Shown here in pieces: positions 1 to 32,610 of a stretch of 37,828 bases of DNA. Location: positions 1 through 37,828 of IMG/VR virus record IMGVR_UViG_3300044816_000046; one strand, written 5' to 3'. The stretch is from a virus. Within the stretch, counting starts at the first letter, position 1, and each line of letters opens with the position of its first letter. Under the pieces are notes generated by a model, which saw nothing but the letters and a program-made list of their open reading frames with translations, ran no database searches and was not told where the DNA came from. The translations under genes and the position numbers were made by a program.

Positions 1-1022
1 AGCTGATGACCGGCAAGAAGGTCGCCCTGCTCGTCCCGGTGTCCGACGAGGTGGTGATGTCCAACCCGGGTGGACTGTACGCGCAGCTGCAGCAGGACCT
101 ACCGACCGCAATTGCCCGTGCGTTCGATTACGCGGCGATTGCCGGTAAGTCGATCCGCACAGGCGCTGCGGGGCCGTTCGCCGACTATCTGGCGTTGACC
201 CCGAACACGGTCTCACTGGGTACCACGGCGCAGGGTTCCGGTGGCCTGTACGCCGACCTCGTCACCGGCGTTGGGAAGGTCGTGGACAACAACTACGACA
301 TGACCGGCTGGGCGGCCGATCCCCGTCTGCGGGTCGACGCGATGCTGGCCACCGACACGCAGGGCCGCCCGATCTTCGGCACCGAAAACGTCGACGTCAC
401 ATCGGGTATCGCTCAGACCAGCCTGCTCGGCTGGCCCGCGTTCTTCAACAAGGGGGTCTCGGGCCGGTATTGGCGCGCAGGCAACTCCGTGCAGACCATC
501 ACGCAGTCCGGCTCGGCCACGGGCGGTAGCTATGTGATCGGTGCGGGCGGTAACAGCCTGTCGGTCGCCTTCAACGCCGCAGCTGCCACCGTGCAGACCG
601 GCGTCCAGGCGTGGGGCGGCATCTTCTCCACCGTCACCGTCACCGGCTCCGCGGGCGGCCCGTACACGGTCACGTTCCCGGCGATCACCTCGAACGTGGC
701 ACCGGAAGCAGCACCGTTCTCGATCATCTCCACTGCGTTGACGGGTGGCACCAGCCCGAAGGTCACCGTTGCTGCGACTGCATCCGGGTCGGTCGACTCC
801 ACCATCCGCGCAGTGGCGGGTGACTGGTCTCAGGCCGCGTACGGCGTCGGCATGGACATCACCTTCAAGGTGTCCAGCGAGGCGTCCTACTTCGACGGCA
901 CCACCTGGCACAGCGCCTTTGCTGAGAATCTCACTCTGCTGCTGGTTGAGGCTTACTATGGCTTCGTAATGGGAAGTCAGAACGCCTTTTGCGTCATAAC
1001 CAAGGGAACGGCCGCCTACTAG
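1..1022 (+). CDS. Major capsid protein, HK97 fold, 5' end outside window
   Basis: The reading frame is open to the left edge, and the first ATG (6) is probably internal, so this is the C-terminal ~338 residues of the shell protein. Motifs typical of HK97-fold capsids are visible: LLVPVSDEVV near the start, then an alpha-rich segment with FDYAAIAG, and late VAGDWSQAAYGVGMDI. Between about residues 155 and 265 (numbering from the ATG at 6) lies an extra beta-rich segment containing VTVTGSAGGPYTVTF; it interrupts the usual capsid core and looks like an inserted surface (decoration) domain. A related segment ends the major tail protein (see findings). The gene is followed directly by a strong hairpin terminator, consistent with high-level expression. 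Scaffold/protease genes expected upstream are not in the window. Confidence 0.85.
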   Translation, partial: LMTGKKVALLVPVSDEVVMSNPGGLYAQLQQDLPTAIARAFDYAAIAGKSIRTGAAGPFADYLALTPNTVSLGTTAQGSGGLYADLVTGVGKVVDNNYDMTGWAADPRLRVDAMLATDTQGRPIFGTENVDVTSGIAQTSLLGWPAFFNKGVSGRYWRAGNSVQTITQSGSATGGSYVIGAGGNSLSVAFNAAAATVQTGVQAWGGIFSTVTVTGSAGGPYTVTFPAITSNVAPEAAPFSIISTALTGGTSPKVTVAATASGSVDSTIRAVAGDWSQAAYGVGMDITFKVSSEASYFDGTTWHSAFAENLTLLLVEAYYGFVMGSQNAFCVITKGTAAY

Positions 1023-2727: not shown

Positions 2728-3582
2728 ATGGCTCATACCGATCCCACAAAAACCTATGTAGGTGTCCCGAAGATCACCGGCGGCATCTTCCGGTACAACC
2801 AGGCCGGTTTGGTGCTGCCCACCGATGCGTACAGCACACGACCCGCCGGGTCTGCCCGCCTCGGTGGGGTGTCCGATGACGGTGTGACGTGGATGTCTGA
2901 GCGTTCCACCGACAAGAAACGCGACTGGAACGGTGACAAGGTCCGGACGGTGCAGAAGTCGAAGGACGACAGCTTCAAAATCACCTACATCGAGTTCTTG
3001 AACGCTGAGGTGGCCGCTGAAATCTACGGCCCCGCCAACGTCACGGTGGTGCCGTCATCTGCGGCGCACGGCACCCAGATCGCCACGAAGAGCGTCGCGG
3101 ATGTTCTCGGGCACCACGCCTACATCGTTGACAGGTTCGACGGAACCGTGAAGCGGCGCACCTGCATTCCCGACGCGCAGGTCGACAAGATCGATGACGT
3201 TAAGGAAAGCCCGGGCGAGTGGTCGATCTACACCGTCACCTACGACCTGTTCCCCGATTCGCAGGGCGGCACGGTGTACAACTACACGGAGTTGGGTGAC
3301 GTGTGGGTTCCGTCGGTGTGGGATGCGACGATCACCGGTTCCGCGGGCACTGTGGTGTACACGGTTGTCAAGGACAGCGTTACGGCGTTCACGTCGGCTG
3401 TCGCGTACAACGCGTCCACAAGCGCCCTGGATACCGCTTTGGAGCTGCTGTCGACGGTCGGGGCGGGCAACGCCACCGTCACCGGTACGGCTGGCGCATA
3501 CCACATCACGCTAGCCAATGGTGGTGTGTTGTCGGCGGTCGGTTCCGGTGGCGCAACCGCTGCGGTGGTCGCGAGCTCGTAA
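2728..3582 (+). CDS. Major tail (tube) protein with C-terminal decoration domain
   Basis: 284 residues from ATG 2728, chosen because GGAGGA (2715-2720) lies 7 nt upstream; in-frame extension to 2602 would overlap the terminator gene and lacks a ribosome site. The N-terminal ~195 residues match siphovirus tube proteins: GGIFRYNQAG, then a TWMSERSTDKKRDWNGD segment and the strand run SFKITYIEFLNAEVAAEIYG. The last ~85 residues (from about 198) form a separate beta-rich module, TVTG(T/S)AG with VAYNASTSALDTALELL, which resembles the module inside the capsid protein. It is followed 5 nt later by an 18-bp terminator, as expected for the most abundant tail protein. Confidence 0.85.
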   Translation: MAHTDPTKTYVGVPKITGGIFRYNQAGLVLPTDAYSTRPAGSARLGGVSDDGVTWMSERSTDKKRDWNGDKVRTVQKSKDDSFKITYIEFLNAEVAAEIYGPANVTVVPSSAAHGTQIATKSVADVLGHHAYIVDRFDGTVKRRTCIPDAQVDKIDDVKESPGEWSIYTVTYDLFPDSQGGTVYNYTELGDVWVPSVWDATITGSAGTVVYTVVKDSVTAFTSAVAYNASTSALDTALELLSTVGAGNATVTGTAGAYHITLANGGVLSAVGSGGATAAVVASS

Positions 3583-3587
3583 CGCGC

Positions 3588-3628
3588 TAGCCCGTCCTGA
3601 GGGGCCGCGTGCCCCTCAGGACGGGCTA
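3588..3628. terminator. 18-bp bidirectional terminator
   Basis: A perfect 18-bp inverted repeat (3588-3605 with 3611-3628) with a 5-nt CGCGT loop lies between the convergent ends of the major tail gene (3582) and the leftward lipoprotein gene (3626). Its right arm includes the last codon and stop of the lipoprotein gene. It should terminate both transcripts and insulate the inserted leftward gene from structural transcription. Confidence 0.85.
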
Positions 3629-4060
3629 CTTGCCGACAGTCAACGGCTTCATGTTCGGATGGAGCAGGATGTCCATCGGTCCGCGGGCATTGATGATCAA
3701 CGCGGAGCGCAACTCGTCCTCGCGAACGATAACGGGATCGTACGGGTCGAGCAGGATCGAATACCCGGCGTCACCCGCTTTGATTCCGGGGACGTTGAAT
3801 CCGAATGAGCAGGCCGGCCCGGTGTCGATGCTGCTGGCGGTGAGTTCACCTTTGCCCAGGATTGTGCCGTCCGCGCCCTTGATGATGAGTGGGTCGCCGA
3901 CACTGACTGTGGAGTCGTAGAACTTGCAGGATTGGCCTTTGACGATGTCATTGGCGGGGGCGCCAACGTCTCCGACTATGTACCCGTTTACGTCGAATGT
4001 CGCAGGTTGGCTGGCGCATGACACGGCGCCCAGCATCGCCAGCCCAATGATCTTCTTCAT
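3626..4060 (-). CDS. Putative phage lipoprotein (lysogenic-conversion moron)
   Basis: 144 residues on the opposite strand to all flanking structural genes. The start at 4060 gives a short signal peptide, MKKIIGLAMLGAVSC, with Cys15 as probable lipidated residue (lipobox AVSC); a longer in-frame start at 4198 would bury this signal. The mature part is beta-rich, with GQSCKFYDSTVSVGDPL, a conserved-looking GTILGKGEL strand and ACSFGFNVPGI, reminiscent of small secreted actinobacterial proteins of unknown function with two Cys. No Shine-Dalgarno is present; TACTGT ends 6 nt before the ATG, which suggests a leaderless transcript made from the prophage. A surface lipoprotein expressed in lysogens could alter the envelope or block superinfection; that role is inference. 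Confidence 0.65.
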   Translation of the reverse strand: MKKIIGLAMLGAVSCASQPATFDVNGYIVGDVGAPANDIVKGQSCKFYDSTVSVGDPLIIKGADGTILGKGELTASSIDTGPACSFGFNVPGIKAGDAGYSILLDPYDPVIVREDELRSALIINARGPMDILLHPNMKPLTVGK

Positions 4061-4066
4061 TGCGTG

Positions 4067-4072
4067 ACAGTA
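4067..4072 (-). promoter_or_regulatory. -10 box of leaderless lipoprotein transcript
   Basis: On the minus strand TACTGT fits the actinobacterial TANNNT -10 consensus and ends 6 nt before the ATG at 4060, putting the transcript start at or next to the start codon. No convincing -35 is seen, which is common for such promoters. Confidence 0.5.
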
Positions 4073-4123
4073 CCGCCCAGCCTTGAGCTGCGGACCCCTG
4101 TTCGTCTCCCCGCGTCGTTCTTG

Positions 4124-4171
4124 CCTTGGCGCGGCGCGGGGAGGCTCCACCCCTTTGCCAAGGCGCCAAGG
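4124..4171 (+). repeat. Inverted repeat overlapping the chaperone ribosome site
   Basis: CCTTGGCGC (4124-4132) is the exact reverse complement of GCGCCAAGG (4163-4171); a second GCCAAGG (4157-4163) gives an alternative pairing with 4124-4130. The right arm contains the only AAGG upstream of the chaperone ATG (4185), so the fold could limit chaperone translation. Alternatively it terminates read-through coming from the left. Confidence 0.4.
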
Positions 4172-4184
4172 TGAAACAGAGACC

Positions 4185-4619
4185 ATGCCGAAGACCAAAG
4201 AACCCGATGAAGTGCTTGCCGTCGCCGACGTTAGTGTCGTCGAGGACGCCGTTGATGTAGTCGAACCTGAGAAGCCGAAGAATCCGAAGCCTGGTGACGC
4301 GGACTACGACTGGTCACCGCACTACGACACCACCAACCTCTACACCCATACCTTCCCGGACGGGCAGACGGTAGCCATCCGCAACTTCGGATCCATCTAT
4401 TCGAAGACGTGGTTGTACAAGCTGCGGAAAGCGGAGACCGACACGGACATTCAGTTCGCGGCGATCGACCGCGCCGCCTGCGACGTCGCACAGGCGGTCA
4501 TCGAATCAATCGAAGCCCCACTCGGCGGTAAAGACCCCATCGACGATCTCTGGGACGCCTGGTCCCAGGCCGGGACCAGTCACAGTGAAGACAGTGCGGG
4601 GTTGACCACGGGGGAATAG
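4185..4619 (+). CDS. Tail assembly chaperone, short form (gpG-like)
   Basis: 144 residues from ATG 4185. The N-terminus is acidic and low-complexity (VLAVADVSVVEDAVDVVEPE), followed by a KPGDADYDWSPHY region and an alpha-helical body ending in DDLWDAWSQAG, the usual shape of the short tail chaperone of actinophages. It lies just before the tape measure, where it would bind the tape measure during tail building. The last sense codons read ACG GGG GAA before the TAG stop and contain the slippery site that produces the long form. The lipoprotein insertion separates it from the major tail gene, normally its direct neighbour. Confidence 0.8.
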   Translation: MPKTKEPDEVLAVADVSVVEDAVDVVEPEKPKNPKPGDADYDWSPHYDTTNLYTHTFPDGQTVAIRNFGSIYSKTWLYKLRKAETDTDIQFAAIDRAACDVAQAVIESIEAPLGGKDPIDDLWDAWSQAGTSHSEDSAGLTTGE

Positions 4620-4999
4620 CGTGGCTGGTCGAAGTAGCGACCGGTGACCTGGCCGACGCCATCCACCGGGATCTACTCACCGACCAGCCGCTGACCTTCG
4701 ATGATCTCGGATGGCGCGGCCTGTGGGCGTACATCACCACAGCTCCACCCGGTACTGCTATCCACCAATCCCGCACCAAGGGCTTAAGCCCCAGTGACGA
4801 ACTCACACTCGAATCAATCAACGAGTTACGTGAGATCAACTGGCGCTACACCGTCGTCCACTTCAAGGGCGGGGCGGACATGCCTTTCCCGCAACGAATT
4901 ACGCGCGAAAGCGTCACCGATCGACCCGAACCCGTCGTAGCTGCGACCCTCGACGAACTCGTCTCGCCCCAAGTGCGGGCACTACTTCAAGGAGGATGA
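4185..4999 (+). CDS. Tail assembly chaperone, -1 frameshift long form (gpGT-like)
   Basis: After a -1 slip at G GGG GAA (4610-4616) translation continues as GIAWLVEVATGDLADAIH and stays open for 128 codons to TGA at 4997-4999, giving about 271 residues in total. The frame-shifted region has no start codon or ribosome site of its own, fills the otherwise empty 380 nt before the tape measure, and reads as a good alpha-helical protein (LTFDDLGWRGLWAYI; ELTLESINELREINWR). A 7-bp hairpin (4625-4631 with 4638-4644) begins 8 nt after the slippery heptamer, the spacing expected of a stimulatory structure. Such programmed shifts are established for tail chaperones of long-tailed phages. Confidence 0.85.
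4610..4644 (+). promoter_or_regulatory. Programmed -1 ribosomal frameshift signal
   Basis: Slippery heptamer GGGGGAA (4610-4616) directly abuts the zero-frame TAG (4617-4619). CTGGTCG (4625-4631) pairs with CGACCGG (4638-4644), one G-U, around the loop AAGTAG. The loop could further pair with CTACT at 4673-4677 to make a pseudoknot (inference). Confidence 0.7.
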
Positions 5000-5000
5000 C

Positions 5001-8000
5001 TTGCCCGAACTCGCCACGGCGTGGGTCACCCTTGCTGCGACCACGCGCGGTATGGAGAACGATATTCGGCGGGCGATCAACCGTGCGGAAGGCTCGGCGA
5101 AACTCAACCCGAAGGTGGATACGTCTGGGTTGAATGCTCAGGCTTCGAAGGCGGGGCGGGCGTTCGGGGAGCGGTTCTCTTCTGGAGCCAAGGACGCGAT
5201 GAAGGCGTTGTCGGTGGCCGTGGTCGGTGCTGGTTTGGTTGATCAGTTCCGCAAGGTCATGTCGGTGGGCATGGACTGGACCAACAACATGAACACGCTG
5301 CAGGCCGTGACGGGGGCGACTGCTGACCAGCTGAAGGCTGCCGGTGCTGCTGCCCGCGCGTTGGGCAATGACATCTCCCTGCCTGCGACGTCGGCCAATG
5401 ATGCCGCTGCGGCGATGACCGAACTGGCTAAGGGCGGCTTCACGGTTCAGCAGGCGATGGACGCAGCGAAGGGTTCGCTGCAACTGGCTGCTGCTGCGCA
5501 GATTTCGGCGACTGACGCGGCGACCATCCAGTCCAACGCGCTGTTGAGTTTTGGTTTGAACGCCAACCAGGCGGGCAAGATGGCCGATACGTTGGCCAAC
5601 GCGGCTAACGCGTCCTCTGCTGAAATCGGCGACGTGGCACAAGCTTTGGCGCAGGCCGGTACCGTGGCGCATTCGTTCGGGTTGAGCGCCGAAGACACTT
5701 CCGCAGCGATTGCCTTGCTTGCCAAGAACGGCATCAAGGGGTCCGACGCGGGCACGCTCCTGAAGACGTCACTGCAAGCGTTGACCGATCAGGGCAACCC
5801 GGCGCAGGGCGCGATCCAAGAACTCGGGCTAACTGTCTATGACGCGCAGGGCAAGTTCGTCGGCTTGCACACCCTGTTCCAGCAGTTGGGTGAAGCGCAA
5901 GGCCGCATGTCGGACCAGTCTTACCAGGCTGCGACGTCGGTGTTGTTCGGTTCGGATGCGATGCGCATCGCCGCTATCGCGGGCCAGGACGGTTCGCGCG
6001 GGTATGACCAGATGCGTACCGCGATTGACCGCCAAGGTGCTGCGGCTGATGTGGCTGCGGCGAAGACGAAGGGCCTGCCTGGGGCGTGGGAACGCGTCAA
6101 GAACGCCATCGAATCGTTGCAGTTGACTGCCTTCGACAAACTCGAAGGCCCGGTCACGAAACTGTTGGATGGTTTGTCGAGCGGGCTGGGTCAGGCCGTG
6201 CCGAAGATTCAGGAGGCATGGGGCAAGCTGTCAGCGAATCCGCAGATCCGGTCGACGTTCACCGATACCGTCAACGTGTTCAAGGGTTTGGCGGATGCCG
6301 CAAAGACGGTGTGGCCGAGCCTGGTACAGATCGGGAAATCCTTGGCGGCAGCCTCGGGGGCATTGGGTGTGGGCACCTGGAAACTGTTCGTCACCGCGTT
6401 GCAGGCTGCTGCGGGTGTGGTCAATACCCTCGCTGGGCCGTTGCAGGCACTTGCGGGGTTCATGAAGAATCAGCCCGGGTTGGTGACCGCCGCTGTTGGG
6501 GCGTGGCTACTGTTCCGCACCGTCCCAGCCTTGATGGGTCGTATCACTACTGCAATAGCCCCGGTGGGAACTGCAGTGCAGACGATGGGACAAAGGTTCG
6601 CCGCAGCCAGGGGTGGCATATCGAACTTTGGTAGCGCCTATCAGACGTACATGGGTTATGTGCGGCAGGCGAATCCGGGTATCAGTACCGCGGCGAATCA
6701 CCTGCGAACGCTGGGCGGCGTCGCAAGCTACGCGGCGTCGGGCGGTTTGAACGCTGTGAAGGGTGCTGCGTCGGGACTTCTGGGCGCGTTGGGCGGCCCG
6801 TTCTCGGCAGCGTTGATCGGCGCCACGATCGCGTTCGGGTTGATTTCGGCGAAGAACCAGCAGGCCGGACAGTCGTTGAAGGCGTATCAGGATGCTGTCC
6901 GTAACACTGAACAAGCCCAGGTGTCCCTCAATGAGGCACTGTTCAATTCACGGGGAGCGTTCGACGACACGGTCAAAGCGTCTGCCGCGGACCGCATCCG
7001 GGCCATCAGCGAAGAGCTGAAGACCGCATCGGAACGCACGGGTTCGTTCCTGGATCAGTTCCGCGCACCCGGCCAAAGCCTGTTCTCCTTCAAGTCGGCT
7101 GGCAGCGGACTTGTTACTGGTGCCGCTAAGTCGCAAGACCAGCAGATCGAGGACGAGGCCAACGCCGCCAAGTCTGCCCGCAAGGCGATCGATGACCTGA
7201 AGCTGAGTCAGCAGTCACTTTCTGACGTTGCTTATGGTTCGCAGGGCGCGTTCGATGCGATGGTCTCGAAGTTGGAGGCGGCGGGTGAGGGTGGGCACAA
7301 GGCTGCCGATCAGTTCCGTGCGGCCCGTGTCGAGTTCCTCAAGCAGCAGGACATCGCGAAAACCGTCACCCCGGGTATCGATCAGCTGGCGAAGGCGATG
7401 CGGACGCTGGCCGACAACACCGCTTCGGCGGCCGACAAGTCCACGGCGTTGAAATCGGCGCTCGATGCGCTCAACCCGTCACGCACCGCCGGAGACGCGG
7501 AAGCAGCGCACACGCAGGCCGCCGCAGCTGCCCAACAAATCGCCACCCCCGACAGCCCGTTGGACCCGACGAAGGGTCTCGGCGACCAGCTGTTCAAGAC
7601 GGACGGCACCGTTCAAACCCTCAACTCCAACGGCGTCACACTCAACAGCACCTTGAAGACGTTGGTGGACACCACCGCTGATGTGGCCACCAAGGGCGGC
7701 GACATGGCCGCCACCCTGAAGAGTAATCAGGATACGTTCGCGGCGCTGGCGAAGCAGTTCCAGACCGACGTCCCGCACATCCAAGCTGCATTCGATGCTC
7801 TGGGCGGCAAGGACATCCAGTTCATCATGTCCCTGGCGGGCGCTCCTGACGTGACGCAGTCGTTGGGGTTGGTGAAACGGGCGTTCGACGAGGTTCCAGG
7901 GTCGAAGGACGTCACCATCAAGACCTCCGAGATCGCGGGAGCGGAGAAGCAACTCGGCGACCTTGGCTTCCATTTGCAGAACTTGCCGAACGGAATCACT

Positions 8001-9494
8001 CGGGTCACCGCAGACACCGATGCTGCACTGATCAAGATTCAAAACCTGATCGCCGCTGCCGCGGCGAATCCGTTGGTGCTGACCGTCGATGCGAAACCGG
8101 TCGGCTTCGGTGCTGGCGTAGGCGTACCCAGGGCGTTGGGTGCCATCGTCGCGATGGCCGGCGGTGGTCTCCGCTCGATGGTGAAGCCGCAGACCGCCGA
8201 CATCTATGCGGGCCGCGGTGCGGGGACGATCTTCGCTGAGCAGGAAACCGGCGGCGAAGCCTACATTCCGTTGGCAGCGCAGAAACGGTCCCGGTCGCGG
8301 CGGATCCTCGCTGAGGTGGCACGCCTGTTCGGGATGAACGTCATGGAGGGTGGCGGCATTTCCGTCGACTCGTTGAAGGAGTTCGCGTCCCAAATTTCTG
8401 GGGGCGGCTACGTCCGCGGCGGTGGTGACGGCAGCGCCTTGGACGGCACGGATTGCAGTGGCGCACAGGCGGCGATCGCCAACTTCATCACCGGCGGCTC
8501 GGGACGCTTCTCTACGGGCGGCGAAGCAGCCGCCTTGCTGTCCCGCGGATTCCAGCAGGGCGACCCACCGCCTGGGGTGGCCGCGTACTGGGTCGGGTGG
8601 CGCCAGGGCGGCCCCGGTGGCGGGCACACCGCGGGGACGATCGTGGACCCGTTGGGCGGCAACGTCAACGTGGAGATGGGTGGATCATCCGGTGGGGGCG
8701 CGTTCGGTGCTGGTGCTGGCGGTGCGTCCGGGTTCCCGAACAGGGCGTGGATTCAGATCGCAGGAGGAGAAGACCCCAACGCGCCGAACAGTTTTGGTGG
8801 TGGTTCGGCGGCGGTGCAGTCAGCGCGGGCTTCGGTGACGAGTGCGAAGGGGCCGGTCACTTCCGCGCAGGCCAGCCTGGATCAGGCCAACGCCGCAGTA
8901 GCGGATGCGAAGACGAAAGGCCAGTCCGCCGACAAGGTCGCGATCGCCGAGAAGAAACGCGATGCGGCGCAGCAGAAGCTAGACGCCGCCAAGCAGCGGC
9001 AGACCGCTGCTGAAACGAAGCTCGCCGATGCCACCGACAAAGCGGCCAGCAACACGGGCAAGAACGGTGGGATGGATGGCCAGTCGCTGGGGCAGTCCAT
9101 CTTCTCCGGGATTCTGCAATCCATCGGCCTCGACGGGTCGGTGTTCTCCAACCCGTTCGACTGGCCGAACGTCAAATCGGCCATGGCCTTCGCCAACTTC
9201 GGTGGCGGCCTACTGAAGGGTGCCATGGGCGGCGACCCTAGTGGTGGGATGAACATCGGCGGACTCAACCTGCCGAACATCACCGACGGCTTCCAACCGA
9301 TGGGGCCACAAGCACTCACACCGAATGCCCCAGTCGGAGCCGATCAGGGCGGCGTCGGTGGGCATCCCTTGGTGGCCTACAACGGGCCCGTACACATGGG
9401 TGTCGACCCCAGGGCCATGACCCAACGGCAAGGCGCCGACATGAACCAAGCATGGCGCCGCAGCGGCCTCCCGGCGATCAGAGGGACCGGATGA
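5001..9494 (+). CDS. Tape measure protein with embedded NlpC/P60-like motif
   Basis: 1497 residues, starting at TTG 5001: GGAGG (4991-4995) lies 5 nt upstream and the long chaperone ends one base before. Residues ~130-265 look like the TP901-type tape measure core (AMTELAKGGFTVQQAMD, NANQAGKMADTLANAA). Hydrophobic stretches lie near 470-520 and 575-615, probably for membrane insertion. Around 1140-1220 is a peptidoglycan-hydrolase-like block, GTDCSGAQAAI with Cys1152 and PGGGHTAGTI with His1209, the NlpC/P60-like motif known from mycobacteriophage tape measures, presumably opening the wall locally during injection. An Ala/Lys coiled coil follows at ~1271-1350. At about 0.15 nm per residue the tail would be near 220 nm. 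The stop overlaps the next start (ATGA). Confidence 0.93.
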   Translation: MPELATAWVTLAATTRGMENDIRRAINRAEGSAKLNPKVDTSGLNAQASKAGRAFGERFSSGAKDAMKALSVAVVGAGLVDQFRKVMSVGMDWTNNMNTLQAVTGATADQLKAAGAAARALGNDISLPATSANDAAAAMTELAKGGFTVQQAMDAAKGSLQLAAAAQISATDAATIQSNALLSFGLNANQAGKMADTLANAANASSAEIGDVAQALAQAGTVAHSFGLSAEDTSAAIALLAKNGIKGSDAGTLLKTSLQALTDQGNPAQGAIQELGLTVYDAQGKFVGLHTLFQQLGEAQGRMSDQSYQAATSVLFGSDAMRIAAIAGQDGSRGYDQMRTAIDRQGAAADVAAAKTKGLPGAWERVKNAIESLQLTAFDKLEGPVTKLLDGLSSGLGQAVPKIQEAWGKLSANPQIRSTFTDTVNVFKGLADAAKTVWPSLVQIGKSLAAASGALGVGTWKLFVTALQAAAGVVNTLAGPLQALAGFMKNQPGLVTAAVGAWLLFRTVPALMGRITTAIAPVGTAVQTMGQRFAAARGGISNFGSAYQTYMGYVRQANPGISTAANHLRTLGGVASYAASGGLNAVKGAASGLLGALGGPFSAALIGATIAFGLISAKNQQAGQSLKAYQDAVRNTEQAQVSLNEALFNSRGAFDDTVKASAADRIRAISEELKTASERTGSFLDQFRAPGQSLFSFKSAGSGLVTGAAKSQDQQIEDEANAAKSARKAIDDLKLSQQSLSDVAYGSQGAFDAMVSKLEAAGEGGHKAADQFRAARVEFLKQQDIAKTVTPGIDQLAKAMRTLADNTASAADKSTALKSALDALNPSRTAGDAEAAHTQAAAAAQQIATPDSPLDPTKGLGDQLFKTDGTVQTLNSNGVTLNSTLKTLVDTTADVATKGGDMAATLKSNQDTFAALAKQFQTDVPHIQAAFDALGGKDIQFIMSLAGAPDVTQSLGLVKRAFDEVPGSKDVTIKTSEIAGAEKQLGDLGFHLQNLPNGITRVTADTDAALIKIQNLIAAAAANPLVLTVDAKPVGFGAGVGVPRALGAIVAMAGGGLRSMVKPQTADIYAGRGAGTIFAEQETGGEAYIPLAAQKRSRSRRILAEVARLFGMNVMEGGGISVDSLKEFASQISGGGYVRGGGDGSALDGTDCSGAQAAIANFITGGSGRFSTGGEAAALLSRGFQQGDPPPGVAAYWVGWRQGGPGGGHTAGTIVDPLGGNVNVEMGGSSGGGAFGAGAGGASGFPNRAWIQIAGGEDPNAPNSFGGGSAAVQSARASVTSAKGPVTSAQASLDQANAAVADAKTKGQSADKVAIAEKKRDAAQQKLDAAKQRQTAAETKLADATDKAASNTGKNGGMDGQSLGQSIFSGILQSIGLDGSVFSNPFDWPNVKSAMAFANFGGGLLKGAMGGDPSGGMNIGGLNLPNITDGFQPMGPQALTPNAPVGADQGGVGGHPLVAYNGPVHMGVDPRAMTQRQGADMNQAWRRSGLPAIRGTG

Positions 9495-28145: not shown

Positions 28146-28198
28146 TGCGGGGTTACTTCCGCCCGTCACGTCTTCCCCGCGGATGCGGGGTTACTTCC
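28146..28198. repeat. Direct repeat and hairpin at the end of the leftward operon
   Basis: TGCGGGGTTACTTCC occurs twice (28146-28160 and 28184-28198), 38 bp apart. The second is the 3' part of a 29-nt element (28170-28198) with a CCCCGC/GCGGGG hairpin, closely like a type I-E CRISPR repeat. On the minus strand it also contains the last codons and stop of the leftward gene and its probable terminator hairpin (28175-28190). Confidence 0.5.
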
Positions 28199-28721
28199 CG
28201 TCCCGGATCTGGTAGATACGGGGCCGGGACAGTCCCGTCTCGGCCTGCAAAGTCGCTACGGACGTCCCCCCATCGAGTGCTTCGCGAATAGCGGTGTCGC
28301 GGCGCGGCGAGTTGAAATCACGCCGCCGTAGCTCCTCGACGTCGAGGCGCACCGGCATGTACCCCGCGGGCATCTTCGACGCCTCGTAGGACACCCACTG
28401 GTCATAAGTCATGGTGCCGAAGAATGTCGACGCAGGCTCCGGGCGGTGCACGGTCCAGCCCATCTCGTACGGCTCATCCAGCGGGGTGCCGTACGCCCGG
28501 CATTCTTCCAGTTTTCGATCACGTCGGGCACGGTCGTCCATGGCGGCGATCATCTCGCCGACCGTGGTCGTGGACCGCAGGACCAGCCCGATCGGCGGTT
28601 GGTGCCGGTACAGGCTGGAGGGGAATTCGGTGGTGTCCCACGGTATCTGGCCGTCAAGGTCCAGCACACCGGCCAGTGCTGCGGGGATCTTCGGGTCAAT
28701 CTTGGGTGCGCGAGTGCTCAT
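28191..28721 (-). CDS. Leftward DNA-binding protein with C-terminal HTH
   Basis: 176 residues; the start at 28721 shares a base with the stop of the gene upstream (TGATG). Much longer in-frame starts (to 29105) give Arg/Pro-rich shadow sequence and are rejected. The N-terminal part begins MSTRAPKIDPKIPAAL and has PWDTTEFPSSLY and MTYDQWVSYEASKMPAGY; the C-terminal ~35 residues form a helix-turn-helix (IREALDGGTSVATLQAETGL then SRPRIYQIRDGK). It is the second gene of a leftward pair beside integrase, so it is probably expressed in the prophage as a regulator or immunity factor. The family is not recognised. Confidence 0.65.
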   Translation of the reverse strand: MSTRAPKIDPKIPAALAGVLDLDGQIPWDTTEFPSSLYRHQPPIGLVLRSTTTVGEMIAAMDDRARRDRKLEECRAYGTPLDEPYEMGWTVHRPEPASTFFGTMTYDQWVSYEASKMPAGYMPVRLDVEELRRRDFNSPRRDTAIREALDGGTSVATLQAETGLSRPRIYQIRDGK

Positions 28722-29098
28722 CAGTACTGCTCTTTCAGGGTGTCGATCAGGTCGGAAATCGTGCTGCGGGTCATGGCGGCTAGTGCGGTCTTGGTGTAGT
28801 CGGGCAGTCCGGCTGTGCGGTCGGATAAGACTGCGCCGCTCCGGAAAGCGCTCACGTACAGCTTCCAGGCGTAGTCGACCTGCTGGTCGGTGGCCAGCTG
28901 CGGCGCCGCCGGGTGGCGGCTGTTGAGGATGGCCTGGGCGGCGTCGATGTAAGCGAGGCACAGCCCGGCCTTTTCGCTTCCGATGCTGGCCAGCCGGCCC
29001 CGGGCGGCCCGGTTTTGGGAGATTACCGTGCGTAGCTGCGCGTCGGTGGCGGCTGCGAGGCGGCTCAGGTGCTCGGCGGGGATCTTGTTTTCGCTCAT
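28721..29098 (-). CDS. Leftward small helical protein, lysogeny operon
   Basis: 125 residues starting at ATG 29098. It is all-alpha: HLSRLAAATDAQLRTVISQN, a SIGSEKAGLCLAYIDAAQAI segment, then a middle RHPAAPQLATDQQVDYAWKL and a C-terminal MTRSTISDLIDTLKEQY. No motif is recognised. The longer ORF start at 29218 lies upstream of the predicted promoter. TACACT ends 6 nt before the ATG and there is no ribosome site, so translation is probably leaderless. A 19-bp palindrome lies just upstream. It is coupled to the HTH gene that follows, suggesting they act together. Confidence 0.6.
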   Translation of the reverse strand: MSENKIPAEHLSRLAAATDAQLRTVISQNRAARGRLASIGSEKAGLCLAYIDAAQAILNSRHPAAPQLATDQQVDYAWKLYVSAFRSGAVLSDRTAGLPDYTKTALAAMTRSTISDLIDTLKEQY

Positions 29099-29489: not shown

Positions 29490-30653
29490 ATGGCAGGCCG
29501 CCCACCGCTCCGGATCGGACAACACGGCAACGTCAAACGTGTCGAGGTTGAGCCTGGTGTCTGGGTGGCGCGGTGCCGTTACCGCGACACCGACGGGGTA
29601 ACCCGGCTGGTGGAGCGCCGCAGCCCCGGGGCGGATCAGCACGGCAAGAGTGCCGAGGATGCCCTCATGGAGGCGTTGTCGTCGCGGCGTGCGCCGGGGA
29701 TGGGTGATATCAGCCTCGACTCAAAGGTGACCGAGTTGGTGGTGGTGCACATCGACCGCCTGGAGGAGGACGACCGGTCCGGTGCGACGATCGAGACGTA
29801 CCGTTCGGCCGCTGGGAAGCTCGCCAAGCTCATCGGAGGCTTGAGGGTGGGGGAAGCCACCCCACCAAGGATTGATGCGGCCCTGCGGTCGATGAAGACT
29901 GCGCACGGCGCCGGGATGGCCAAGCACGCCCGAGTCATCCTCAGGGGCGGTCTCCAGCTCGCGGTGATGGCCGGAACGTTGGGGGTCAATCCAGCACGTG
30001 ACGTTTCTCCCATCTCCCAAGGCCGGCCGAAAGGTGCCCCGCCCCTGTCAGTGGAGCAGTTCTCTGGGCTGTTGGAGAAGTTGGCGGGTTCGAAGTACTG
30101 CCTGGACTACGACTTGGTGGGTCCGATCACGATGCTCATGGCCACCGGCCTCCGCAGATCAGAACTCTTGGGCCTGCGGTGGTCGGACTACTCACCGACC
30201 TTGAGCGAGATCGCGATCACGGGGAAGGTCATCCGCGTCAAGGGCAAGGGGTTGCAGCGGTACACGCAGACGAAGACCGCCGCGGGTGAGCGGACCCTGC
30301 CCCTGCCGCGGTTCGCGACCGCCATGTTGGCCGCCCGCCGACGAACTCCGTACGTGGGGGAGCAGACGATGATCTTCCCCAGCACGGCGGGGACGTGGCG
30401 GGATCCGTCGAACTTCGGCCGGGATTGGCGCCGTGTCCGCGACGAACTCGCACTGGCAGACGTCACCAGCCACAGCTTCCGCAAGAGCTTGGCGACGATG
30501 ATCGACGACGAAGGATTATCAGCTCGGATAGGCGCTGACCACCTCGGACACGCGAAGGTCAGCATGACTCAGGACCGGTACATGGCGCGCGGCCGGAAGC
30601 ACGCTGAGGTGGCCGACCTGCTAGATCGCGCCGCATTCATTAGCGGTGGATAA
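29490..30653 (+). CDS. int: Tyrosine integrase
   Basis: 387 residues from ATG 29490. The N-terminal ~85 residues form an arm-binding-like domain (VWVARCRYRDTDGVTRLVER), followed by the SAM-like core-binding domain (~95-170, TIETYRSAAGKLAKLIGGL) and the catalytic domain (~185-387). Catalytic residues: Arg222 in TGLRRSELLGLRW, Lys262 in TKTAAGERTLPL, His328 and Arg331 in SHSFRKSLAT, His354 in LGHAKVSMT and Tyr364 in QDRYMARG. It joins the adjacent attP to a host tRNA gene. There is no ribosome site, and the -10 places the transcript start at the ATG, so expression is probably leaderless and repressible through the overlapping palindrome. Confidence 0.95.
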   Translation: MAGRPPLRIGQHGNVKRVEVEPGVWVARCRYRDTDGVTRLVERRSPGADQHGKSAEDALMEALSSRRAPGMGDISLDSKVTELVVVHIDRLEEDDRSGATIETYRSAAGKLAKLIGGLRVGEATPPRIDAALRSMKTAHGAGMAKHARVILRGGLQLAVMAGTLGVNPARDVSPISQGRPKGAPPLSVEQFSGLLEKLAGSKYCLDYDLVGPITMLMATGLRRSELLGLRWSDYSPTLSEIAITGKVIRVKGKGLQRYTQTKTAAGERTLPLPRFATAMLAARRRTPYVGEQTMIFPSTAGTWRDPSNFGRDWRRVRDELALADVTSHSFRKSLATMIDDEGLSARIGADHLGHAKVSMTQDRYMARGRKHAEVADLLDRAAFISGG

Positions 30654-30701
30654 GTGATGGATTCAGGCTGTGTAGTTTGGCTACTTACCACTTCTGACCA
30701 G

Positions 30702-30740
30702 TGCGCCGTCAGGGTTTCGAACCCCGGACCCGCTGATTAA
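30702..30740 (-). other. attP: attP core: 3' half of a tRNA-Lys gene
   Basis: Read on the minus strand, the segment starts TTAATCAGCGGGTCCGGGGT, continues through the T-arm TTCGAAACCC and ends GACGGCGCA. This matches the anticodon-to-acceptor 3' half of an actinobacterial tRNA-Lys (CTT). The 5' half of a tRNA is absent, so it is not a phage tRNA gene; such fragments restore the host gene after integration. It lies 48 nt after the integrase stop. Confidence 0.85.
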
Positions 30741-30742
30741 GG

Positions 30743-30842
30743 AACCGTGATTGCCAACGGTTTTAACAGGTTCGATCAAAACCGTGTTGGCCTGGTGTTA
30801 TAACCCCATCGGCTCCCGACGACTGCCACAAAACACGGTTGC
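30743..30842. repeat. Arm-type integrase sites (AACCGTG repeats)
   Basis: Four related motifs follow attP: AACCGTGATT (30743-30752), CCAACGGTTTT inverted (30754-30764), AAACCGTGTTGG (30778-30790) and AACACGGTTGC inverted (30832-30842). Such clustered repeats next to an attP core are typical P-arm sites of tyrosine integrases. Confidence 0.6.
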
Positions 30843-30873: not shown

Positions 30874-31521
30874 CTAGACCGGCTTGCGGGGCGGAACCTT
30901 CAGCTCATTCCGGCAGTTGGGACATCCCACGAACTTGGCACCCGAAGGGATGAGCATCCGTGTCTCGCAGTGCAGGCACGTGAGCCTGCGCCGCTCCTCG
31001 GGGGGAACGTCGGGGAAGTGGTGGCCGCAGTGCTTGCACACCTGGGCGTCGGCGAGGACGGTCTCCGCGCATTCGGGGCACTTCTTCTTCTCGCCACCGG
31101 ACTGCCGTAGCGTCAGCGACCCGACGAACCCGAGTAGCACACCCAACCCGGCCACGTAGATGGAGATACCCCAGTCTGCGACTTGGCCGGGCTTGCTGGA
31201 ATCCGCAGTGCCGTCCAAGCCCACGGGGTACAGGGTGCGCATGTCGGTGTTGGTCGCCCAGATGATGATGCCGATGGCCGTGAAGATGCTCACGACGAGG
31301 GGGATGAGCCAGTCGTCCCGGGTGATGTAGGCGCGGAACCCGCTGGCGGCCAGCGCGAGCGCGCCGATGATGACGAGCCACCCGTCGTGCTGAATCAACG
31401 TGTTCTGTTGGACGAACCTGAACAGTCCGGTTGCCTCGTCCAGTGGTAGGAACGTCGACACCGCCAACAGGGCTGCTCCGACGAGCACCAGCCCGAATCC
31501 CAGCGGATTCCCCCGATTCAT
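30874..31521 (-). CDS. Membrane protein with C-terminal zinc ribbons (moron)
   Basis: 215 residues from ATG 31521 on the minus strand. Four hydrophobic segments occur near residues 8-25, 45-62, 72-90 and 118-138 (FGLVLVGAALLAVSTFL; WLIPLVVSIFTAIGIII). The cytoplasmic C-terminal third has two zinc ribbons: CPECAETVLADAQVCKHCG and CLHC...CPNC. The protein lies between integrase/attP and the repressor, oriented with the repressor, and has a TACGCT -10 ending 7 nt before its ATG with no ribosome site, all pointing to prophage expression. Membrane proteins at this place often exclude other phages; that role is inference. Confidence 0.65.
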   Translation of the reverse strand: MNRGNPLGFGLVLVGAALLAVSTFLPLDEATGLFRFVQQNTLIQHDGWLVIIGALALAASGFRAYITRDDWLIPLVVSIFTAIGIIIWATNTDMRTLYPVGLDGTADSSKPGQVADWGISIYVAGLGVLLGFVGSLTLRQSGGEKKKCPECAETVLADAQVCKHCGHHFPDVPPEERRRLTCLHCETRMLIPSGAKFVGCPNCRNELKVPPRKPV

Positions 31522-31789: not shown

Positions 31790-32059
31790 GTGCCCGAATC
31801 GGCAACGGAATTAGGCGCACGCATCGCTAAGAGTATCGACATCATCCCAACACCAGCAGCAGAAGAACTGTTCTTGCCGCACATGATGTGGCAGCTCCGC
31901 GCCGTCATGGACGACGTCAAACCGAAGGACCTGTTGCCCTCAGAGCTGATTGCGCTGCTCGCCGTCCTCGTCCCCGCGCACTCCCGCATCCTCGTCGCCG
32001 CCAGGCCCCCACCCTCCGGACCATTCCTCACCATTCTGCAGGGTGGCTGGACGACCTGA
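31790..32059 (+). CDS. Small helical protein convergent with the repressor
   Basis: 89 residues from GTG 31790, with AAGGGGG (31777-31783) 6 nt upstream; in-frame ATGs further up (31646, 31727) have weaker support. The sequence has ESATELGARIAKSIDIIP, a helix FLPHMMWQLRAVMDDVKPKD and DLLPSELIALLAVLVPAH. The last 40 codons overlap, on the opposite strand, the low-complexity end of the repressor gene by 120 bp. It might be an antagonist or partner of the repressor or a small immunity factor. No family recognised. Confidence 0.55.
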   Translation: MPESATELGARIAKSIDIIPTPAAEELFLPHMMWQLRAVMDDVKPKDLLPSELIALLAVLVPAHSRILVAARPPPSGPFLTILQGGWTT

Positions 32060-32455
32060 CACCTCCTCGGTTTGTCCCGCTTCAACCGGTGTTCCCGCCG
32101 CCGCGGTCTGATTAGTAGCTTCGGCATGAGATACCTCTTTTGCTCGCAGGATGGTGTTGACCACGTCGAGCACGACTTGACGTTCAGTAGCGTCGAGCCG
32201 CCGCGCCTTCAGTGGCATCGCGAACAGTCCGGTGACGTCATCGCCACGTAGTGCCAGCGCGTCGACGACCGGTATGGCCAGGGTCTTCGCGATGCGCTCG
32301 GCGGTGTCGTCTTCGGCTTCACCTTCGCCGGTAAGGAATCGGATCACGGTGTTGATGCCGAGTCCGGTTTTCTCCTGTAGCCCGTTGAAGCTGAACCGCA
32401 CCTGAGCATCGTCGAAGACCTTCTGCCACTGAGGTGGGACGGTCCGTTTGTTCAC
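31940..32455 (-). CDS. Immunity repressor candidate, HTH domain
   Basis: 171 residues. GTG 32455 is preferred because AGGAAGG lies 8 nt upstream on the minus strand; in-frame ATGs at 32506 and 32524 lack ribosome sites. Residues ~20-62 form a lambda-type HTH (FSFNGLQEKTGLGINTVIRF; then a dimer helix ERIAKTLAIPVVDALAL). A middle helical part (RRLDATERQVVLDVVNTILR) may oligomerise; the C-terminal ~55 residues are Gly/Glu-rich and low in complexity. Divergent orientation to a Cro-like gene, with repeated operator half-sites between, makes it the probable lysogeny repressor. Confidence 0.75.
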   Translation of the reverse strand: MNKRTVPPQWQKVFDDAQVRFSFNGLQEKTGLGINTVIRFLTGEGEAEDDTAERIAKTLAIPVVDALALRGDDVTGLFAMPLKARRLDATERQVVLDVVNTILRAKEVSHAEATNQTAAAGTPVEAGQTEEVSGRPATLQNGEEWSGGWGPGGDEDAGVRGDEDGEQRNQL

Positions 32456-32507
32456 GCCCTCAACCTTCCTGCCGACACGCGGCAACGCAACCGCTGGTCT
32501 GACCATG

Positions 32508-32610
32508 CTGGAAAGGAAAAACACTGGTGTTATTCCAGTTCAAGCAGCATAGCGGCACAGAACTAGTTTCCAGAGGGTTGCCAGGGCTGGAAAGTGTGCT
32601 AGTGTTCCAG
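32508..32610. promoter_or_regulatory. Repressor/Cro switch: five CTGGAA half-sites and divergent promoters
   Basis: Half-sites CTGGAA/TTCCAG lie at 32508-32513, 32533-32538, 32568-32573, 32587-32592 and 32605-32610; the last two make an inverted pair with a 12-nt spacer. A rightward promoter TTGCCA (32578-32583), 16 nt, TAGTGT (32600-32605) is covered by them. Leftward, TATGCT (32551-32546, minus) is the likely -10 of the repressor. Confidence 0.65.

What the first reader, a model, noticed from the sequence alone, without database searches (positions are those of the whole stretch)
3588..4184. Leftward lipoprotein gene inserted between tail tube and tail chaperone genes
The tube-chaperone pair is normally adjacent in siphoviruses. 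Here a signal-peptide lipoprotein gene on the other strand splits them, insulated by an 18-bp bidirectional terminator. This is the hallmark of a moron. Prophage-encoded lipoproteins can block superinfection or change host surface traits.
Basis: partly seen in the sequence, partly recalled or inferred. Interest (0 to 1): 0.65.

Follow-up and report, generated by a model that had tools for sequence, protein, structure and literature searches.

The report
Swappable lipoprotein cassette in tail operon
A temperate actinobacterial phage carries, backwards inside its tail-gene operon, a self-contained cassette for a cell-surface lipoprotein; relatives carry different lipoproteins, or none, at this place, which suggests interchangeable genes expressed in lysogens, most likely to keep out rival phages.

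Summary
Window 3626-4060(-) encodes a 144-aa lipoprotein between the major tail protein (MTP, 2728-3582) and the tail assembly chaperone (TAC, from 4185). TACTGT-N6-ATG, a leaderless-type promoter, precedes it; a perfect 18-bp hairpin follows. Gordonia phage Posh gp17 is a 43% homologue, also leftward, but between TAC and tape measure (TMP).

Of 30 informative IMG/VR relatives, 24 have an empty 88-184-bp MTP-TAC gap; all six with a 527-745-bp gap carry a leftward lipoprotein. Among Posh's close relatives, six unrelated leftward cargo types (five lipoproteins, one membrane protein) fill the TAC|TMP slot while TAC and TMP DNA stay 88-99% identical. Three cargo families occur at both slots. All 13 distinct cargo genes carry TANNNT-N6-start; other lipobox-like ORFs in the control scan did not.

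The window phage, Posh and TPA4 are temperate. Prophage expression is likely but unproven. Superinfection exclusion is the best-supported function, but inferred; lysogenic conversion is a serious rival. Cargo varies independently of the phage's own TMP, so self-TMP-matched exclusion is less likely. The kind (moron, exclusion lipoprotein) is known; the interchangeable leaderless cassette at two tail-operon slots is a new variant.

The parts
2728..3582 (+). Major tail protein gene, left neighbour
   Evidence: phrog_117 E 1e-39; 47% identical to M. abscessus prophage MTPs
3583..4103 (.). Inserted cassette (boundaries approximate): hairpin, lipoprotein gene, promoter
   Evidence: Absent from 24 of 30 informative relatives; right edge is where similarity to empty sites resumes
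3588..3628 (.). Perfect 18-bp hairpin between convergent MTP and lipoprotein genes, probable bidirectional terminator
   Evidence: no U-tract
3626..4060 (-). Lipoprotein gene, 144 aa, predicted lipidated Cys15
4067..4072 (-). -10 element TACTGT, 6 nt before the ATG: leaderless-type promoter
   Evidence: TANNNT-N6-start in all 13 distinct cargo genes; 4 of 2428 ATG/GTG in the window; control scan
4104..4184 (+). Ancestral MTP-TAC intergenic hairpin and tandem SD copies, left intact by the insertion (neighbour, not cargo)
4185..4619 (+). Tail assembly chaperone gene, right neighbour; probable -1 frameshift near 4610-4616 into an ORF ending at 4999
   Evidence: phrog_17360 E 3e-40; reading frames
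29490..30653 (+). Tyrosine integrase; its start has the same TANNNT-N6-ATG pattern
   Evidence: PF00589 E 2e-16, phrog_1

Best explanation
The feature is a moron: an autonomous, exchangeable cassette of temperate phages of Mycobacteriales, inserted backwards in the tail operon. A SigA-type -10 element 6 nt before the start codon drives a leaderless mRNA from the prophage while the late operon is silent (inferred from sequence). The mRNA ends at the hairpin facing MTP (inferred). The product is exported, lipidated at Cys15 and held on the outer face of the cytoplasmic membrane (inferred from signal and lipobox). There it most likely interferes with entry of superinfecting phages, heterotypic ones included, as known superinfection-exclusion lipoproteins do (inferred). 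Shown here: gene, homology, insertion, cargo replacement, conserved promoter motif, temperate lifestyle.
For: Insert absent from 24 of 30 informative relatives and filled by leftward lipoproteins in 6. Six unrelated cargo types among Posh relatives (cargo DNA 43-53% identical between types) with TAC 92-99.7% and TMP start 88-99.6% identical. Three cargo families shared between the two slots. TANNNT-N6-start in all 13 cargo genes, not in other lipobox-like ORFs; TANNNT is the mycobacterial -10 motif (PMC3898074). Window, Posh and TPA4 phages temperate. Precedents: Ltp (PMC3952083) and the mEpimmI lipoproteins, located in the structural cluster, of several types, shown to exclude phages (PMC11893012).
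Against: No expression or phenotype data. Cargo does not track the phage's own TMP (94-99.8% identical across five cargo types) or fibre, as an exclusion matched to self would predict. Some cargo resembles host exported domains. No PADLOC match. No usable structure model. Hairpin lacks a U-tract.
Confidence: 0.5

Rival explanations
1. Lysogenic conversion without phage exclusion: captured host-type surface lipoproteins, expressed from the prophage, change envelope or fitness traits of the lysogen.
For: The window protein is distantly related to a domain in exported proteins of 16 of 298 Mycobacteriales genomes, including a lipoprotein and a kinase-like protein; DUF732 cargo in L025 and Wrigley.
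Against: Rapid replacement of unrelated cargo at a fixed slot among nearly identical phages is more typical of conflict genes; this is an argument from pattern only.
Confidence: 0.3
2. Lytic-phase self-protection, like T5 Llp: the lipoprotein is made during infection and masks a receptor so that progeny are not lost on debris or superinfected cells.
For: Location among virion genes; surface lipoprotein.
Against: The gene faces against late transcription and has its own promoter of the type found at the integrase. Cargo does not track fibre: Wrigley and BeeGee fibres are 89% identical but cargo is unrelated.
Confidence: 0.1
3. Hitchhiking cargo of no present benefit, decaying or exchanged by recombination only.
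For: Most relatives lack an insert; L020 has only a 76-aa ORF with coding-like sequence in another frame, so it may be disrupted.
Against: Signal peptide, lipobox and start context are retained across unrelated cargo; all 18 Posh-type records keep a gene in the slot; window and Posh proteins stay 41-43% identical over nearly full length.
Confidence: 0.1

Closest known systems
Gordonia phage Posh gp17 (group of BritBrat, cluster CY2 in PMC6426606; annotated hypothetical protein)
   Same: Homologous lipoprotein (41-43%), leftward in the tail operon, TANNNT-N6-ATG, temperate phage
   Different: Lies between TAC and TMP rather than MTP and TAC; its stop meets the TAC stop with no hairpin between
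Tsukamurella phage TPA4 gp14 (hypothetical protein)
   Same: Same slot (MTP|TAC), leftward lipoprotein, hairpin, TANNNT-N6-ATG, temperate phage
   Different: Unrelated mature protein
mEpimmI coliphage Lpp lipoproteins (PMC11893012)
   Same: Several lipoprotein types within the structural gene cluster of related temperate phages
   Different: Gram-negative, outer-membrane receptors; exclusion shown by experiment there, not here; no sequence comparison made here
Ltp of Streptococcus phage TP-J34 (PMC3952083)
   Same: Gram-positive prophage lipoprotein outside the cytoplasmic membrane
   Different: ltp lies in the lysogeny module; Ltp expression and block of DNA injection are shown; no detectable similarity to P0001 in the PDB sequence search, which holds solved structures
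Actinobacterial exported domain with GYxDI-type motif (no model found)
   Same: Weak profile similarity over the mature domain
   Different: Window copy lacks several residues common in the cellular copies, such as GYxDI and VEVSHRG

Membership tests
Phage moron | Extra gene between genes that are adjacent in relatives | tested here: met
   24 of 30 informative relatives have an empty 88-184-bp junction
Phage moron | Own promoter and terminator | tested here: inconclusive
   Promoter motif conserved and specific; hairpin present but without U-tract; neither measured
Phage moron | Expressed from the repressed prophage | not testable with these tools
   Phage is temperate; no RNA data
Bacterial lipoprotein | Signal peptide with lipobox and Cys | tested here: met
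   MKKIIGLAMLGAVSC in window, LAGC in Posh; by pattern only
Superinfection-exclusion lipoprotein | Blocks infection by other phages when expressed | not testable with these tools
   Needs plating assay
Superinfection-exclusion lipoprotein of Ltp type (TP-J34) | Sequence similarity to Ltp | tested here: not met
   No relevant PDB or Pfam match; Ltp structure is published, but its own sequence was not compared directly
Superinfection-exclusion lipoprotein of Ltp type (TP-J34) | Target is the tape measure protein | tested here: inconclusive
   Indirect only: cargo varies while TMP is 94-99.8% identical, against matching to own TMP; other phages' TMPs remain possible targets
Actinobacterial GYxDI-type exported domain | Profile match to cellular exported proteins | tested here: met
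   Profile A3 hits 16 of 298 genomes, E 9e-4 to 3e-8 per genome; distant, and the Dietzia row helps

The most novel reading that the evidence does not exclude
The junctions MTP|TAC and TAC|TMP of temperate phages of Mycobacteriales are standing exchange slots for a shared pool of leaderless, leftward, membrane-anchored exclusion genes, whose specificity is uncoupled from the carrier's own tape measure and fibre proteins and aimed at other phages.
Probability: 0.35. Interest if true: 0.7.

Novelty: new variant of a known kind. Interest (0 to 1): 0.5.

Why it matters
It gives a simple sequence rule (leftward gene beside the tail assembly chaperone, TANNNT-N6-start, lipobox) for finding candidate surface exclusion genes in prophages of Mycobacterium, Gordonia and Tsukamurella, where prophage-borne defence bears on which phages can infect a strain. 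The Posh-type Gordonia phages, nearly identical in chaperone and tape measure but with different cargo, are a ready-made set for testing what each cargo does.

Tried and rejected
Pfam, PHROG, NCBIfam, PADLOC and PDB sequence searches gave no useful family for the window protein. Pattern scans for its relatives in viral and genome contigs found none. Structure prediction from the single sequence failed (pLDDT 33); the Posh and genome sequences were not added because the tool restricts its input, so no fold search was made. The sigma-70 consensus scan saw no promoter; TANNNT without a -35 is the mycobacterial pattern. The idea that each cargo matches its own phage's TMP was tested and not supported. 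The extended start at TTG 4198 was rejected. L036 (1807-bp gap with an IS-like insertion) and truncated L019 were left out of the counts. Scans with Posh-type MTP and TMP added only the BritBrat genome as a further filled slot. Open-licence paper searches found no description of this slot.

Full report
WHAT IS THERE. The window is a 37.8-kb virus record. Its left part is a siphovirus head-tail operon: capsid-like protein, adaptors, tail terminator, MTP 2728-3582, TAC 4185-4619 with a probable -1 frameshift, TMP 5001-9494. Between MTP and TAC, on the minus strand, lies an ORF of 144 aa (3626-4060) that begins MKKIIGLAMLGAVSC. Its base composition is like that of its neighbours (GC 59%, GC3 78%). 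A perfect 18-bp inverted repeat, 3588-3605/3611-3628, separates it from MTP and folds at about -41 kcal/mol on either strand. There is no U-tract, so termination is an inference.

IT IS A REAL GENE. tblastn against 50,697 phage records finds one good relative, gp17 of Gordonia phage Posh: 43% identity over 85% of the protein, E 2e-24. Posh gp17 is also a lipoprotein (LAGC) and also leftward, but sits between TAC and TMP. A weaker relative is a lipoprotein of a Dietzia plasmid. A profile of these three matches proteins in 16 of 298 Mycobacteriales genomes, several with a motif of the form C-x-G-x-x-GYxDI...C-x-F-x-F. The mature domain therefore looks like a distant version of an exported actinobacterial domain. 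The profile is small and one row helps it, so this is a lead of moderate strength.

IT IS AN INSERT. An MTP alignment retrieved 32 IMG/VR loci. L019 is truncated and L036 carries a 1.8-kb IS-like insertion. Of the other 30, 24 have MTP and TAC 88-184 bp apart, and 6 have a gap of 527-745 bp. All six (L020, L025, L033 = TPA4, L048, L049, L050) hold a leftward lipoprotein gene; in L020 the ORF is short and may be disrupted. Empty sites share with the window the hairpin and SD region just before TAC, so the cassette lies between the MTP stop and that hairpin, roughly 3583-4103.

CARGO IS REPLACED. BritBrat, a close relative of Posh, is cluster CY2 in PMC6426606. Eighteen Gordonia records, Posh included, keep a gene 17 at the TAC|TMP junction. 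Nine phages were read in detail. They carry six cargo types: Posh; Wrigley; Confidence/Cashline/EMsquaredA; Jablanski; BeeGee; Angelique/Lilas. Five are lipoproteins; Angelique/Lilas encode a protein with a zinc-ribbon-like start and hydrophobic segments. Between types the cargo DNA is 43-53% identical, that is unrelated, while the first 600 nt of TAC are 92-99.7% and the first 500 nt of TMP 88-99.6% identical. Gordonia phage Dmitri, with an 84% identical stretch of TMP, has no insert. Three cargo families occur at both slots: window and Posh; L049 and the Confidence group (26%, E 8e-9); DUF732 proteins in L025 and Wrigley.

COMMON PROMOTER. All 13 distinct cargo genes have TANNNT exactly 6 nt before a start codon: window TACTGT-cacgca-ATG, TPA4 TACGAT-cgcgcg-ATG, Angelique TATGAT-cggccg-ATG and so on; L048 by a GTG one codon up, Posh by the ATG at L003 9920. 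Some upstream regions at the MTP|TAC slot are related to one another, so these 13 are not all independent; the TAC|TMP slot is a separate context. In the window the pattern precedes only 4 of 2428 ATG/GTG triplets: the lipoprotein, the integrase (29490), a leftward gene near it (29098), and an 8-codon ORF. A scan of the related loci for any minus-strand lipobox-like ORF found the pattern only at slot genes (L020, L025, L033, L048, L049, L050, and BritBrat as L072/L073) and at none of the many other candidate starts. TANNNT is the -10 motif at 73% of primary transcription starts in M. tuberculosis, with no -35 consensus, and leaderless mRNAs are common there (PMC3898074). A -10 placed 6 nt before the start codon thus predicts a leaderless mRNA. 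No start site has been measured.

LIFESTYLE. The window phage has a tyrosine integrase, an antirepressor and a weak HTH repressor candidate at 31940-32524(-). Posh and TPA4 are annotated with integrase and repressor. Prophage expression is therefore plausible.

FUNCTION. Prophage lipoproteins that block phage entry are known: Ltp of TP-J34 (PMC3952083), and Lpp021/Lpp010 of mEpimmI coliphages, whose several types lie in the structural gene cluster and were shown to exclude phages (PMC11893012). The pattern here, unrelated membrane-anchored cargo exchanged at a fixed place among nearly identical phages, fits exclusion. One prediction was checked: if each cargo acted on its own phage's TMP, cargo and TMP should change together. 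They do not: TMP is 94-99.8% identical across five cargo types, and Wrigley and BeeGee also share an 89% identical fibre. This favours action against other phages or a host-directed role. Lysogenic conversion remains a serious rival, because some cargo resembles host exported domains.

VERDICT. Observation confirmed; moron reading supported; exclusion plausible but untested. The kind is known. The interchangeable leaderless cassette at two tail-operon slots was not found described in the papers searched, a search limited to open-licence papers.

Noticed in passing
window 4104-4184 (+), and MTP-TAC junctions of L005, L007, L008, L018 and most of L020-L050: Conserved RNA element before the TAC gene: a hairpin (window stem 4104-4118/4132-4146 approximately) whose loop is complementary, 8-10 Watson-Crick pairs, to two tandem SD-like copies just upstream of the TAC start. 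Loop and SD change together (CTTGG/CCAAG, CTCGG/CCGAG in TPA4, L050 and L026, CTCGAC/GTCGAG in L048) and stems vary too (own pairing at least 8 in all 11 types, cross-type mean 4.3, shuffled mean 4.2). Suggests a pseudoknot that hides the chaperone's ribosome-binding site. No Rfam match.
   Followed up: partly
window 28721-29098 (-) and 28191-28721 (-): Leftward gene pair next to the integrase; the first has TACACT-N6-ATG, the same leaderless-type context as the lipoprotein. No Pfam match.
   Followed up: partly
window 30874-31521 (-): Leftward membrane protein with a C-terminal zinc ribbon (UPF0547/DZR) beside the integrase; the zinc-ribbon plus membrane-segment make-up recalls the Angelique/Lilas slot cargo.
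   Followed up: no
window 30695-30760: Sequence resembling the 3' half of a tRNA gene (reverse complement contains GGGTTCGAAACCC) just after the integrase: possible attP core. Read by eye only; ARAGORN finds no complete tRNA.
   Followed up: no
window 6-1022 (+): Capsid-like ORF whose C-terminal half matches tail protein profiles (phrog_10909, phrog_2839), suggesting an appended Ig-like domain.
   Followed up: no
L036 6861-8668: A 1.8-kb insertion with a 410-aa leftward ORF that looks like an IS110-type transposase (by eye) sits in the same MTP-TAC junction: the junction tolerates other insertions too.
   Followed up: no
L020 6907-7414 (-): The lipoprotein ORF is only 76 aa, with more coding-like sequence in another frame, so this copy may be frame-disrupted.
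   Followed up: no
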